This document shows, in pieces, positions 3,285 to 59,086 of a stretch of DNA of 64,000 nucleotides. A program made the translations under genes and the position numbers. Source of the DNA: Chitinophagaceae bacterium (GTDB taxonomy: Bacteria; Bacteroidota; Bacteroidia; Chitinophagales; Chitinophagaceae); the NCBI GenBank assembly GCA_019638615.1, contig JAHBTL010000014.1, positions 1 through 64,000 of the forward strand, written 5' to 3'. The first letter of the stretch is position 1; each line of letters opens with the position of its first letter. A model generated the notes under the pieces. It was not told the DNA's origin and searched no databases. It was given only the letters and a program-made list of their open reading frames with translations.

Positions 3285-3925
3285 ACCCTGCGAAGGTCAC
3301 TGCGATACCGCAATGGGGTTGTATTAAGCTAAAGATATATTGGCGCGGGAGAAGCAGTCCCAACCTGAGATCAATCGTTGAGATTGCTTCCCCAAACCGA
3401 AGGTCGGGGTCGCAATGACCCTAATTTTTTTCGTCACTGCGAGTTACTAATTAGGCGGCGCCTCCATCATTGCGCCGTGACAAGTTGCATTTGTTTGTCA
3501 CAGCTTTCTGATTTGTAAGTATCCTAAGTCGGCTAAGTTATCAGCAAACGTATCAGGGCTCTGTTGCTGAATTCACAGTAGTACTAAAGCTTCATCAGAG
3601 CGTTCCGGGAAATTGCGGTAATAATTTCCCGGCGGCTTTTTGGTTACTTTTTTCCGCAAAAAAGTAACAGAAAAAAGCGGAGGGATTGTAGTTGAAAGGA
3701 AAACCGGGTTTGTGGAACAACAAATTGAAGTTCATAACCAGTTGATAAATAACAAACTGGATGATATGTCATTGGCAGACCGCGATAGGGTTGCATTAAA
3801 CTAAAGATATGTTGGCGCGGGAGAAGTAGTCCCAACAACTGTTATACGGCGAGTCAGGCGACTGACGCACAAAGCTATGCGCAGAGACTACGCCTGGGAA
3901 GAGTTTTTTTTCGTCATTTCCACCC
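3285..3925. repeat. Intergenic repeat cluster: A unit, B copy 1, A fragment
   Basis: No credible protein gene. 3298-3419 is a REP-like A unit with a GC-rich inverted core (GCGGGAGAAGCAGTCCCAAC). 3433-3777 is copy 1 of the 345-bp B module, and 3778-3838 is another A unit on the far side. The reverse-strand open frame across 3644-3838 is repeat-derived, because the same frame recurs at 39 kb. Confidence 0.85.
3433..3777 (+). repeat. B module copy 1 (345 bp dispersed repeat)
   Basis: By eye it matches 58742-59086 in the same orientation with two mismatches, and the reverse complement of 39201-39545 with the same two. It contains a perfect 8-bp hairpin (GGGAAATT / AATTTCCC) and a perfect 11-bp hairpin (GTTACTTTTTT / AAAAAAGTAAC, loop CCGC). 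Its right end abuts an A unit. Confidence 0.9.
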
Positions 3926-13661: not shown

Positions 13662-14357
13662 GAATTAAAATTAATGCTCAATGGCAGGGCGCAAATCGTA
13701 TATAATGTTAAATACGGGAGAGCAAGATAATGACTTTTTAGTGTAAACCTGAATATCGTGAAGGTTATAAGATCATCAGCTCCCTACGGTCACGGCGAGT
13801 AAACCATTCGTGTGCTCAATCATTGAGCCTTGACATGTTGTACTCGTATTTTTCAGTTTTTTATATGCCAGGTTCAGAGAAAATGTATCAGAAATCTGTA
13901 GTTGAGTTTACAGTAGTACTAACGCTTAATCAGTCCCGCAAAAAGCGGGACGGGAAATTGCGGTAATAATTTCCCGGCGCCCGCTCGAACGATATTCAAG
14001 TCGGGCGGGGCTTTTTGGTTACTTTTTCCGCAAAAAAGTAACAAAGAAACCAGCACCAGGAATTGTGGTTGAAAAGAAAGCGCGTTTTATAAGCAACAAA
14101 CCCGCAGTTCATACTTCATTGATAAACACTCAACTGAATAATATGTATTGGCAGCCCGCCTTCATGCAAACTGGAGTTAGATCAATGCGCTGGCGGGAGA
14201 AGCAATCCTCGCAGAAAAAGAGGAAGTTGTCCTCTGCAAGGACTGCTTTATTACTACTATGAACTCAGCAACAGAACTCTGATGTATTTGCTGCTAATTT
14301 TTCCGGTCGGGTATCATGATCCTTTAAACAGCAATATAAAATGAAATGGTATGTTTT
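13662..14357. repeat. Intergenic region with ancient B module copy 4
   Basis: 696 bp without a convincing intact gene. 13789-14153 aligns along its whole length with the 345-bp B module but is strongly diverged. It has gained a small hairpin (GTCCCGC-AAAAA-GCGGGAC at 13933-13951) and a mini-palindrome (13979-14010). 14258-14302 is an inverted fragment matching the middle of B. Confidence 0.75.
13789..14153 (+). repeat. B module copy 4 (diverged)
   Basis: Landmarks shared in order with the young copies: the GACAnGTTG segment, the CAGTAGTACTAA block, the GGGAAATTGCGGTAAT hairpin, the GTTACTTTTT...AAAAAAGTAAC hairpin, then ATTGTGGTTGAA and TTGATAAAC, ending at TTGGCA. Confidence 0.75.
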
Positions 14358-39200: not shown

Positions 39201-39545
39201 TGCCAATGACATATCATCCAGTTTGCTATTTATCAACTGGTTATGAACTTCAATTTGTTGTTCCACAAACCCGGTTTTCCTTTCAACTACAATCCCTCCG
39301 CTTTTTTCTGTTACTTTTTTGCGGAAAAAAGTAACCAAAAAGCCGCCGGGAAATGATTACCGCAATTTCCCGGAACGCTCTGATGAAGCTTTAGTACTAC
39401 TGTGAATTCAGCAACAGAGCCCTGATACGTTTGCTGATAACTTAGCCGACTTAGGATACTTACAAATCAGAAAGCTGTGACAAACAAATGCAACTTGTCA
39501 CGGCGCAATGATGGAGGCGCCGCCTAATTAGTAACTCGCAGTGAC
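39201..39545 (-). repeat. B module copy 2 (inverted)
   Basis: The reverse complement matches copy 3 (58742-59086) at every position I could compare and copy 1 with two differences. Confidence 0.9.
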
Positions 39546-47583: not shown

Positions 47584-50500
47584 TTATACTACAGCTTTTC
47601 TTCTTTGCTCACGTAAACGCAGGGCTTTGTGGTATACGATAGGGAAAACAAGCAGTGTAAAAATGGTAGCTGTGACCAATCCCCCGATAATAACGATTGC
47701 CAGGGGCTTCTGGCTTTCGGAGCCTATGCCTGTACTAACGGCGGCGGGTAATAGCCCAATGGCAGCCATTAGTGCAGTCATTACCACGGGACGTGTTCTT
47801 ACCTTAACCGCATTGATGATCGCCTCGTTCAGGTTGCTGATCGTTTTAGATTGCTTGTGGAACTCTGAAATCAGGATAACGCCGTTTTGCACACAAATAC
47901 CAAACAACGCAATGAATCCCACGCCGGCGGATATACCAAAGTTGATGCCGGTAACGTGCAAAGCCAGTATACCTCCTATCAATGCAAAGGGCACATTGAT
48001 AAGCACGTATCCTGCATCTTTCGCATTGTTGAACATAATGAACAGCAAAACAAAAATGAGTATCAAGCTGATGGGAACCACCTGGGAAAGCCGCTTGCTC
48101 GCCCTCACCTGGTTTTCAAATTCGCCTGTCCAGCCCATGGTATACTCCTGCGGCAGACTGATATGCGCGTTCACGTTTCTTTGCGCTTCGGCTATGGTGC
48201 TACCCAGATCCCTTTCGCGAACGGAAAATTTTACGCCGATGAAACGTTTGGTATTGTCCCTGTAAATAAAAGCCGGGCCTGTTACCTGCTTTACTTCCGC
48301 TACTTCCTTAAGCGGGATCTTATTGCCGGTAATGCCCGGTATCATTAGCATCATAATGTCTTCTTCATTTTTGCGGTACTCTTTTTCGTATCGTATCCTG
48401 ATATCGAACTTCTTTTCACCTTCATATTTTTGCGTGGCGGTTTTGCCGCCTATTGCCATTTCTATCACGGCCTGCGCATCGGCTTTGGTGATGCCGTAAA
48501 TAGCCATTTTTTCTTCATCCAGCAATACGCTCAACTCGGGTTGCCCGATATTCCTGAGTATACCAACATCTTTGATCCCGGGTACATCTTTGATCTGCTC
48601 AATGACACGGTTGGCTATTTCGTCAAGCTTGTTTAAATTATCGCCATATATTTTTATGGCATTGGAAGCATTCATTCCGGCCACCGCTTCCGCTACATTG
48701 TCAATGATGGGTTGCGAATAATTATAATTAATGCCCTGGTAATTTTTCAGCTGCCTGTCCATTTCTTCTACCAGGTCATCTAAAGAAATCTTCCGTTTCC
48801 ACTCTTCTTTCGGTTTCAGGTTTACCTGCATCTGAACATAATAAAACCCGCTTGGGTCGGTACCGTCATTGCTTCTGCCGGTTTGGGACAGCACGCCATT
48901 CACCTCCGGAAATTTCATCAGCTCCTTTCTCAGAATGCTCACCTTTTCTACTGTTTGAGGCAAAGAATAGCTCATCGGCATTTTTGCTTCTACCCATAAC
49001 GCGCCCTCATTCAGTTGTGGCAAAAATTCCGTGCCCAGCCAGCGGGTAGAAAAAATGGTGAGTATAAAGCATATCCCCGCAATAAATAAGGAGATCCTTT
49101 TATGGGCAAAGGTCCAGCCAAAGCCTTTTGCCACCATTTTGTTTACAGTTCTTGTAAAAAAATTGTCTTTTTCACGTACGTTTTTACGAAGCAGCATAGA
49201 ACACAAAACGGGCACCAGCGTTAAGGTGAATAAAAGCGCGCCCAATAAGGCAAAGCCCAATGTCCAGGCCAGCGGCGAAAACATTTTCCCTTCTACTTTT
49301 TCAAATGAAAAAATAGGAAGCAGTGCAGAAATAATAATAAGCTTGGAGAAAAAAATGGCTTTACCCATTTGCACTCCCGTGGTTTTGATGAGGCCCATTT
49401 TGGCCAGCTTGTTAAAGCGATCCATACCCACCTTATGGGCTTTATGATCCAGCCCTACAAAAATGCCTTCTACCATTACCACCGCCCCATCTATGATAAT
49501 ACCGAAATCAATGGCTCCCAGGGAAAGGAGATTGGCGCTCATGCCTTTCAGCTTCAGCATTAAAAATGAAAATAGTAAGGATAACGGAATGACCACCGCT
49601 ACAATAACCGTGGTTCTCCAGTCGGCCATAAACAAAAATACGATGACCGTAACAAGGATAATACCCTCAGCCAGATTGTGCATTACGGTTCTGGTACAGT
49701 ACGCCATCAGGTTATCCCGGTCGTAAAAAGTTTCCATTTTTACATCAGACGGTAAAATGGTGGTATTGAGCTCGTGTATTTTTTCTTTTACTCTTGCCAG
49801 CACTTCGCTGGGGTTCTCGCCTTTCCGCATTACTATTATTCCTTCTACCACATCGTCATTGTCGTTCAAGCCTACCTGCCCTACCCTGGGCGCACTGGCT
49901 TCCTGAACCGTTGCCACATTTTTTACCAAAAGCGGGTTGCCGTTAAAAATATCTACAATGGTATTTTCAATATCGGCTTTGCTGTCCAGCAATCCTATCC
50001 CCCGTACCACATATGCCTGCCCGTTCTTTTCTATTACATCGCCGCCAACGTTCAGATTCGATTTGCTTACCGCTTCATACAATTCCAGCGGCGTCAGGTC
50101 ATACTGCTGCAGCTTAACGGGATCAACGGATATTTCGTATATTTTTTCCTGCCCCCCAAAAGCCACTATATCCGCGACACCCGGTACCCTGCGCAGCTCC
50201 CGGTCAATGATCCAGTTTTGAATAGTGAGCAGATCCCTGGTATCCCGTTGGTCGGCTGTCTGTCCGCTGGCTGGCTGGCTTTTCAAAACATAGCGGAATA
50301 TTTCTCCTGTAGGCCCGTAGGGCGGTTGCACATCGGGTTCTGCGCCATCCGGCAGCGACACATTCCTCAGTTGGTTGTTTACCTGCTGCCTCGCGAAAAA
50401 ATCTTCCACATCGTCTTCGAAAATGATCTTGATAACTGACAGACCGAACATGGTAATGCTGCGCACATTGGTTTTACGCTGCACGCTGTTCATGGCTATT

Positions 50501-58741: not shown

Positions 58742-59086
58742 GTCACTGCGAGTTACTAATTAGGCGGCGCCTCCATCATTGCGCCGTGACAAGTTGCATT
58801 TGTTTGTCACAGCTTTCTGATTTGTAAGTATCCTAAGTCGGCTAAGTTATCAGCAAACGTATCAGGGCTCTGTTGCTGAATTCACAGTAGTACTAAAGCT
58901 TCATCAGAGCGTTCCGGGAAATTGCGGTAATCATTTCCCGGCGGCTTTTTGGTTACTTTTTTCCGCAAAAAAGTAACAGAAAAAAGCGGAGGGATTGTAG
59001 TTGAAAGGAAAACCGGGTTTGTGGAACAACAAATTGAAGTTCATAACCAGTTGATAAATAGCAAACTGGATGATATGTCATTGGCA
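58742..59086 (+). repeat. B module copy 3
   Basis: 345 bp; differs from copy 1 at two positions and matches the reverse complement of copy 2 throughout by eye. Confidence 0.9.

What the first reader, a model, noticed from the sequence alone, without database searches (positions are those of the whole stretch)
3433..3777. A 345-bp intergenic module in three nearly identical copies over 55 kb, plus one ancient copy
3433-3777, 58742-59086 (direct) and 39201-39545 (inverted) have the same length and only two differences among them by eye, although they lie in noncoding DNA between unrelated genes. That implies recent amplification or ongoing gene conversion. A full-length but strongly diverged copy at 13789-14153 shows the family is old in this genome. 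The module carries two perfect hairpins and no transposase. It could be a non-autonomous element, an RNA gene or a chromosome-organising site.
Basis: seen in the sequence. Interest (0 to 1): 0.78.

Follow-up and report, generated by a model that had tools for sequence, protein, structure and literature searches.

The report
IS110-type mini-element with structured passenger
The repeated block is a short mobile DNA element without its own enzyme that sits at one exact spot of common genome repeats, probably moved by an RNA-guided recombinase, and it carries an older, folded passenger that also occurs in related genera.

Summary
Observation confirmed: 58742-59086 and 39201-39545 (inverted) are identical, 3433-3777 differs at two bases, 13789-14153 is an old relative. 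The 345 bp split into a 10-bp host tag (mostly GTCAYTGCGA) and a 335-bp element, 335 bp in 32 of 32 copies measured. In 28 of 32 the joined flanks match an uninterrupted REP-like repeat among held loci, without target duplication. The genome also holds a broken IS110-family element at the same REP position, with the same right end (TGTCATTGGCA) and a similar left end (9-11 of 12). Its leader contains ACTGCGA (target tag) and TGGCAG (right end); a related IS110 of another species has, at aligned positions within one base, words matching its own flank and end. Best reading: a non-autonomous element moved in trans by an IS110 recombinase and bridge RNA. Inside lies a ~110-nt core, matched over most of its length in 23 of 244 genomes of the family (13 genera; any match: 40), with two covarying hairpins and a loop-linker pseudoknot (22 of 28 variants over all parsed hits, shuffled mean 8.6). 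No Rfam family reaches its cut-off. Its function, and whether it acts as RNA or DNA, is open.

The parts
3433..3442 (+). host REP tag GTCACTGCGA, the target, copy 1
   Evidence: the tag varies with the host REP among copies
3443..3777 (+). 335-bp element, copy 1
   Evidence: fixed ends GTTACTAATTAG...TGTCATTGGCA
3296..3419 (.). uninterrupted REP unit bounded by GTCAYTGCGA in inverted orientation, next to copy 1
   Evidence: sequence
39201..39535 (-). 335-bp element, copy 2
   Evidence: identical to copy 3
39536..39545 (-). host REP tag, copy 2
58742..58751 (+). host REP tag, copy 3
58752..59086 (+). 335-bp element, copy 3
13789..13798 (+). tag-like GTCACGGCGA before the old copy
13799..14153 (+). 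old diverged member with an enlarged central hairpin
58875..58977 (+). structured core in copy 3
   Evidence: covariance model R1 (as L002 1634-1736)
39310..39412 (-). structured core in copy 2
3566..3668 (+). structured core in copy 1 (transferred by alignment from copy 3)
13901..14042 (+). structured core in the old copy, with extra hairpin sequence
   Evidence: L083 1613-1754
58914..58941 (+). hairpin 1: stem with compensatory changes across the family
58942..58945 (+). linker containing CGG, partner of the hairpin-2 loop
58952..58977 (+). hairpin 2 GTTACTTTTTT-CCGC-AAAAAAGTAAC; its loop pairs with the linker

Best explanation
The module is a 335-bp non-autonomous mobile element inserted directly after GTCAYTGCGA, the tagged end of CGTC-type REP palindromes. 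It carries no recombinase. Its two ends resemble those of an IS110-family element whose broken remnant lies in the same genome at the same REP site. Inferred mechanism: the IS110 recombinase and its bridge RNA recognise the few bases at the joined ends (...GTCATTGGCA|GTTAC...) and the REP tag, and move the element in trans, so only short terminal sequences must be kept and the interior is free. The 335-bp version spread recently in this genome. The ~110-nt core is a passenger older than this element, made of two hairpins and a loop-linker pseudoknot. Shown: ends, site, absence of target duplication, shared ends and site with the IS110 remnant, guide-like words in its leader, core conservation and covariation. 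Inferred: mobilisation in trans, bridge-RNA guidance, any role of the core.
For: 335 bp in 32 of 32 copies; left 10-mers GTCACTGCGA 13, GTCATTGCGA 11, GTCCCTGCGA 5, three others once. Joined flanks match a relative among held loci without a gap at the junction in 28 of 32 (identities 72-98%). IS110 remnant, 1376 bp at G000:C3:118867-120242: GTCATTGCGA|GTAACCGATTAG...TGTCATTGGCA|GGGAGG; its two open pieces match PF01548 and PF02371, and NF033542 below its cut-off. Left 12 nt against GTTACTAATTAG of the window's young copies 9 of 12, against GTTACCAATTAG (G005) 10, against GTAAACGATTAG (an old own copy) 11. Leader words ACTGCGA and GCGGTA total 13 nt against GTCACTGCGA|TACCGC, reached by 1 of 1000 shuffles. 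In the aligned G003 IS110 leader, within one base of these positions, stand ACGCAAG, matching its own left flank GACGCAAG, and TTAGTA, matching its own right end CATTAGTA; the remnant has TGGCAG against CATTGGCA|G. The module's own best guide totals are 8-10 (no shuffles run for it). Short relatives with similar ends and no core match exist (L118, L122).
Against: Only one IS110 remnant with these ends was found, and it is broken; of 58 relatives searched with one piece, only the own genome and G003 (41% identity) match. The target words were noticed before they were tested, and the donor words were compared by eye only. The guide order (right-target guide 5', left-target guide 3') is the mirror of IS621 (PMC11208160, passages). 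The test requiring both donor halves is at chance (625 of 1000 shuffles). Target and donor share no obvious dinucleotide core. G003's boundaries are inferred by alignment. 4 of 32 joined flanks lacked a relative among held loci.
Confidence: 0.76

Rival explanations
1. A single-strand element moved by a Y1 (HUH) transposase of the IS200/IS605 or RAYT type: no target duplication, asymmetric ends, hairpins inside.
For: Same insertion logic: target word left of the element and a similar word as its right end. Hairpin stems are almost purely Watson-Crick (helix 1: 313 WC, 5 GT, 4 AC, 7 other, 1 gap of 330 cells in 33 distinct stems). Own genome has 7 Y1 hits; one broken Y1 gene lies about 560 bp from a truncated copy.
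Against: Of 71 Y1 matches in 20 core-bearing genomes, the 30 whose loci were fetched hold neither the core nor the end words searched within up to 1.5 kb; the other 41 were not examined. G047, G222, G132 and G147 have no Y1 match at all. The shared ends belong to an IS110 remnant.
Confidence: 0.1
2. The copies are not transposed; REP regions were homogenised by gene conversion or homologous recombination.
For: The copies sit in REP-like repeats, which could recombine.
Against: Both ends are fixed to the base in 32 of 32, flanks differ, and uninterrupted relatives of the joined flanks exist for 28 of 32.
Confidence: 0.05
3. The unit of selection is the core as an RNA gene; the element around it is incidental.
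For: The core is wider than the element: most of it matched in 23 of 244 family genomes; in G151 only about 110 bp are shared among three copies; strong covariation.
Against: Relatives with similar ends and no core match exist, core orientation relative to neighbouring ORFs looked mixed in the 19 loci listed (read by eye), and few G-U pairs are seen in the stems.
Confidence: 0.09

Closest known systems
IS110-family elements that insert into REP sequences (IS621; ISPpu9, ISPpu10, ISPa11: PMC1525189, passages)
   Same: REP as the target, precise insertion, a recombinase relative with matching ends in the same genome
   Different: the module has no recombinase gene and shows no guide words of its own; the remnant's guide words are in mirrored order relative to IS621
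CGTC-tagged REPs (Di Nocera et al. 2013, PMC3733652; parts 1-2 of 8 and passages)
   Same: the target: 25 of 32 left flanks read CGTC at the tag
   Different: the module is an insertion into the repeat, not the repeat; stems of the target were not compared with the paper's consensus figures
QMITE2 of Coxiella with IS1111 (PMC5896051, abstract and passages)
   Same: short non-coding repeat, a REP and an IS110/IS1111-type element found together; source of a small RNA
   Different: there IS1111 inserts into the MITE's REP; here the mini-element itself has IS110-type ends and lies inside the REP
H-type pseudoknots with U.A-U triples (telomerase RNA, preQ1-II, SAM-II; recalled)
   Same: arrangement linker - U-run - U/A stem whose loop pairs back to the linker
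   Different: no sequence relation tested; triple helix not shown; could act as DNA

Membership tests
IS110-family-mobilised non-autonomous element | both ends shared with a recombinase-bearing IS110 | tested here: met
   right end TGTCATTGGCA identical; left 12 nt 9-11 of 12 depending on the copy; same REP site. The recombinase gene is broken
IS110-family-mobilised non-autonomous element | bridge RNA guides match target and donor | tested here: inconclusive
   target words 1 of 1000 shuffles; both-halves donor test 625 of 1000; left-target and right-end words differ in G003 in step with its flank and end; mirrored order versus IS621
IS110-family-mobilised non-autonomous element | circular joined-end intermediate | not testable with these tools
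   needs PCR or long reads
Autonomous IS110 insertion sequence | DEDD / Transposase_20 recombinase gene | tested here: not met
   the element is 335 bp; among ORFs of at least 80 aa, one of 84 and one of 103 aa overlap copies 3 and 2, with no Pfam match
Classical MITE | terminal inverted repeats | tested here: not met
   no pair at the termini; the nearest is a 14-nt, 79% pair about 40 bp inside the ends
Classical MITE | target-site duplication | tested here: not met
   28 of 32 joined flanks align without a gap at the junction; GTCATTGGCA at the right is element sequence resembling, not copying, the tag
IS200/IS605 or RAYT-mobilised REP | flanks or accompanies a Y1 transposase gene | tested here: not met
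   0 of the 30 Y1 loci fetched, of 71 matches; of 7 own loci one has a truncated copy near a broken Y1 gene
Known Rfam RNA family | covariance-model match | tested here: not met
   none in the window at gathering score. Six loci at E up to 5 gave six weak hits; two overlap a core (STnc410 20.4 bits, cut-off 50; mir-3910 23, cut-off 95)
Structured RNA (core) | compensatory base changes | tested here: met
   A5, from 50 chosen sources: 181 double-change cells, shuffled mean 34.4, best slid 39. A4, all 112 matches of 77 sources: 262, shuffled 51.1, best slid 67
Structured RNA (core) | transcribed and acting as RNA | not testable with these tools
   no expression data; few G-U pairs leave DNA-level constraint possible

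The most novel reading that the evidence does not exclude
The core is an undescribed class of structured nucleic acid of the Chitinophagaceae, most likely an RNA with a compact pseudoknot in which a U-run lies in the groove of a U/A stem as a triple helix, and bridge-RNA-guided mini-elements are a vehicle that multiplies and relocates it within genomes.
Probability: 0.4. Interest if true: 0.8.

Novelty: new variant of a known kind. Interest (0 to 1): 0.62.

Why it matters
If right, it shows that RNA-guided IS110 recombinases have short non-autonomous followers needing only a few terminal bases, which would explain how REP-rich genomes fill with precise insertions. It ties CGTC REPs, for which the 2013 survey (PMC3733652) found no dedicated transposase, to an IS110 that uses the repeat as target. 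The core gives structural and RNA biologists a testable new fold with many natural variants.

Tried and rejected
Peptide reading: an open frame through the right part of the module looked protein-like by eye, but it has no stop within the module, and G006 relatives break it (by eye). The ORFs of 84 and 103 aa overlapping copies 3 and 2 have no Pfam match.

Y1/RAYT partner: no association in what was examined. A longer autonomous relative was sought through end patterns; these gave subfamilies and coreless forms, no gene. Small contigs were fetched but read only at their ends. The IS110 was found by reading the Transposase_20 loci.

Nested pairing of the linker with sequence after hairpin 2, suggested by single-sequence folding: 7 of 59 versus shuffled mean 7.4, rejected as a conserved pairing.

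Against the loop-linker pairing. The 30-combination test (27 of 30) used 50 chosen sources that left out loci with long inserted hairpins and, with them, most flipped loops. Over all 147 hits considered, 31 could not be parsed; the rest give 28 combinations, 22 with three or more complementary bases (shuffled mean 8.6, maximum 18 of 10,000) and 103 of 116 sequences. The six failing combinations are loop GCGG (5 hits) or ACGG (1), a flipped hairpin; linker GGTGGC with loop CCGC (4); GGGGCC with GGACAAGC (1); two shortened loops. Many of the 116 are near-identical copies.

Core counts: of the 40 genomes, many of the weaker ones match only the T/A hairpin over some 30-50 nt; 22 have a match spanning 75 nt or more and one more (G073) is supported by the model (L177), which I counted by hand. 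G080 was missed but has 8 model matches. Phylum search with the model: 7 of 395 genomes, two in the own family (G000, G080); the five outside have E 1e-6 to 7e-4 and were not examined; only 9 candidates per genome were scored. Viral contigs: 0 for a core pattern, no relative of the IS110 piece. Plasmids: 229 records with distant relatives, all under 60% identity, not followed. One search stopped half-way (its first results are used) and was continued in 61; one search's flank test counted self-matches and was replaced.

Papers: parts or passages of PMC3733652, PMC1525189, PMC5896051, PMC11208160; search listings only for the rest. Those five searches listed no paper that by title or abstract start describes this element or core; the library is open-licence only.

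Full report
Observation. The three copies and the old relative are as described. The window lies on contig C6 of a 7.18 Mb draft genome of 87 contigs. It holds 32 places covering 343-345 of the 345 bp and 8 partial ones of 213-329 bp, plus a diverged subfamily. Several contigs end inside further members, so the count is a lower bound. Among the 32 copies the mean pairwise difference is 4.7 bases of 335, so this version spread recently.

Host. Two genomes of the same genus were identified through matching contig lengths: G005 is JAHBTJ01 (Chitinophagaceae bacterium ACE_BAC11) and G002 is MKWG01 (Sphingobacteriales bacterium 44-15). I call the family Chitinophagaceae after the title of the first record; the tools gave no family name. 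11 of 12 genomes of the genus, the own included, hold a match.

Anatomy and insertion site. Aligning the flanks shows a 10-base word on the left that differs between copies, then a constant 335-bp element ending in GTCATTGGCA (one of the 30 own copies aligned there has GTCATTGACA, one GTCATCGGCA). In 32 of 32 copies the length is 335. The left words are GTCACTGCGA (13), GTCATTGCGA (11), GTCCCTGCGA (5) and three singletons. The right flanks are different REP subtypes (TACCGC 9, GGGAGG 4, 16 others with 1-3 each). With the elements masked, 28 of 32 joined flanks match a relative among the held loci without a gap at the junction, at 72-98% identity; L003, L006, L013 and L051 had none. The target is therefore the tagged end of a CGTC-type REP: 25 of 32 flanks read CGTC; the family is described in PMC3733652. 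The genome has 125 exact GTCAYTGCGA words against 23 for the reversed pattern. There is no target duplication and no inverted repeat at the termini.

Autonomous partner. The seven Y1 transposase hits and four IS110 hits were checked for these ends. One IS110 locus, L070, is bounded like the module: GTCATTGCGA|GTAACCGATTAG at the left and TGTCATTGGCA|GGGAGG at the right, 1376 bp. Its gene is broken into pieces that match PF01548 and PF02371 in Pfam, and the NCBIfam model 'IS110 family RNA-guided transposase' below that model's cut-off. A module copy sits at the other end of the same REP, on the opposite strand. The left end agrees with the window's young copies at 9 of 12 positions, with GTTACCAATTAG of G005 at 10 and with an old own copy at 11.

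Guide words. Bridge RNAs of IS621 carry two loops that pair with target and donor (PMC11208160, passages). The 271-nt leader of the remnant contains ACTGCGA and GCGGTA, together 13 nt against GTCACTGCGA|TACCGC; 1 of 1000 dinucleotide shuffles does as well. I had seen these words before running the test. The test requiring both donor halves is at chance (625 of 1000). A second look came from G003, whose IS110 is 55% identical to the remnant's first piece over 99 residues. In the aligned leaders, within one base of the remnant's ACTGCGA, G003 reads ACGCAAG, and its left flank is GACGCAAG; within one base of the remnant's TGGCAG, G003 reads TTAGTA, and its right end is CATTAGTA. This comparison was made by eye; the G003 boundaries are inferred by alignment and its empty site was not tested. 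In the remnant the guide order is mirrored relative to IS621, which I cannot explain; in G003 only the left-target word was found, at the same place. The module's own best guide totals are 8-10, which fits movement in trans.

The core. Module positions of about 133-244 match other genera. With only 3 candidates scored per genome, 40 of 244 family genomes in 26 of 101 genera have some match. Many weak ones cover only the T/A hairpin. Counting only matches of 75 nt or more, plus one genome supported by the model, gives 23 genomes in 13 genera (counted by hand). A covariance model from 10 sequences finds cores in held loci. In 62 aligned matches (59 distinct) from 50 chosen sources, 96.8% of cells pair, 18 of 22 pairs show changes on both sides, and the covariation score is 0.454 against 0.124 for shuffles and at most 0.089 for slid partners. 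Over all 112 matches of 77 sources the score is 0.337 against 0.095 and at most 0.073. Both alignments were fitted to the model's two hairpins, so they lean towards them. The loop-linker pairing was not part of the model: in the chosen set 27 of 30 distinct combinations have three or more complementary bases, shuffled mean 9.7, maximum 19 of 10,000; over all parsed hits 22 of 28, shuffled mean 8.6, maximum 18. Variants include GCGG/CCGC, GTGG/CCAC, GTC/GAC, CTC/GAG and CTTGAC/GTCAAG. Failures include flipped loops. The competing nested pairing is at chance. The layout - linker, T-run, T/A stem, loop pairing back to the linker - is that of an H-type pseudoknot whose first loop faces a U/A stem; a triple helix is inferred, by analogy recalled from memory.

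RNA or DNA. Departures from Watson-Crick in 33 distinct stems of hairpin 1 are 5 G-T, 4 A-C and 7 others of 330 cells, 1 gap; in ten inner pairs of hairpin 2, 21 distinct stems, 5 G-T, 1 A-C and 2 others. An RNA under selection should prefer G-U more clearly, so a DNA-level role or palindrome repair cannot be excluded. No Rfam family reaches its cut-off.

Passenger or part. In G151 three copies share only about 110 bp; in G110 several pairs share only 62-116 bp, although the inverted pairs of L197 share about 410 bp. In G005 two short relatives with similar ends have no core match. The core and the ends are thus separable modules.

Verdict. A recently amplified, IS110-type non-autonomous element specialised on CGTC REPs, carrying an older structured passenger. 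The first half is a new variant of a known kind; the second may be a new structured family, whose function I cannot give.

Noticed in passing
L040, L041, L043, L044, L045, L048 (G005); L072, L124 (own genome): A roughly 400-bp element bounded by inverted GCGCATAGGCGTCAACTTAA-like ends is nested in the central hairpin region of module copies, in both orientations.
   Followed up: partly
L122 near 2040-2160; L118 near 2160-2280 (G005): Short relatives with ends like the module's but no core match.
   Followed up: partly
L197 1673-1948 and 3330-3603 (G110): Core copies in inverted pairs about 60 bp apart, occurring twice 1.65 kb apart.
   Followed up: no
L174 and L190 (one place), L091, L075 and one more hit: Hairpin 2 carries the loop GCGG instead of CCGC, as if the hairpin had been flipped; this breaks the loop-linker pairing.
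   Followed up: no
G000:C3:48340-48564 and 49120-49368: A module truncated at position 225 lies about 560 bp from a broken Y1 transposase gene.
   Followed up: partly
L160 and L190: The core sits between what look like the same two genes (one resembling murA, recalled) in two species of one genus, with an extra hairpin inserted in the loop in one of them.
   Followed up: no
L072, L040 (second copy): Left flank reads GTCATTGGCA instead of GTCAYTGCGA, as if the target had been the right end of another copy.
   Followed up: no
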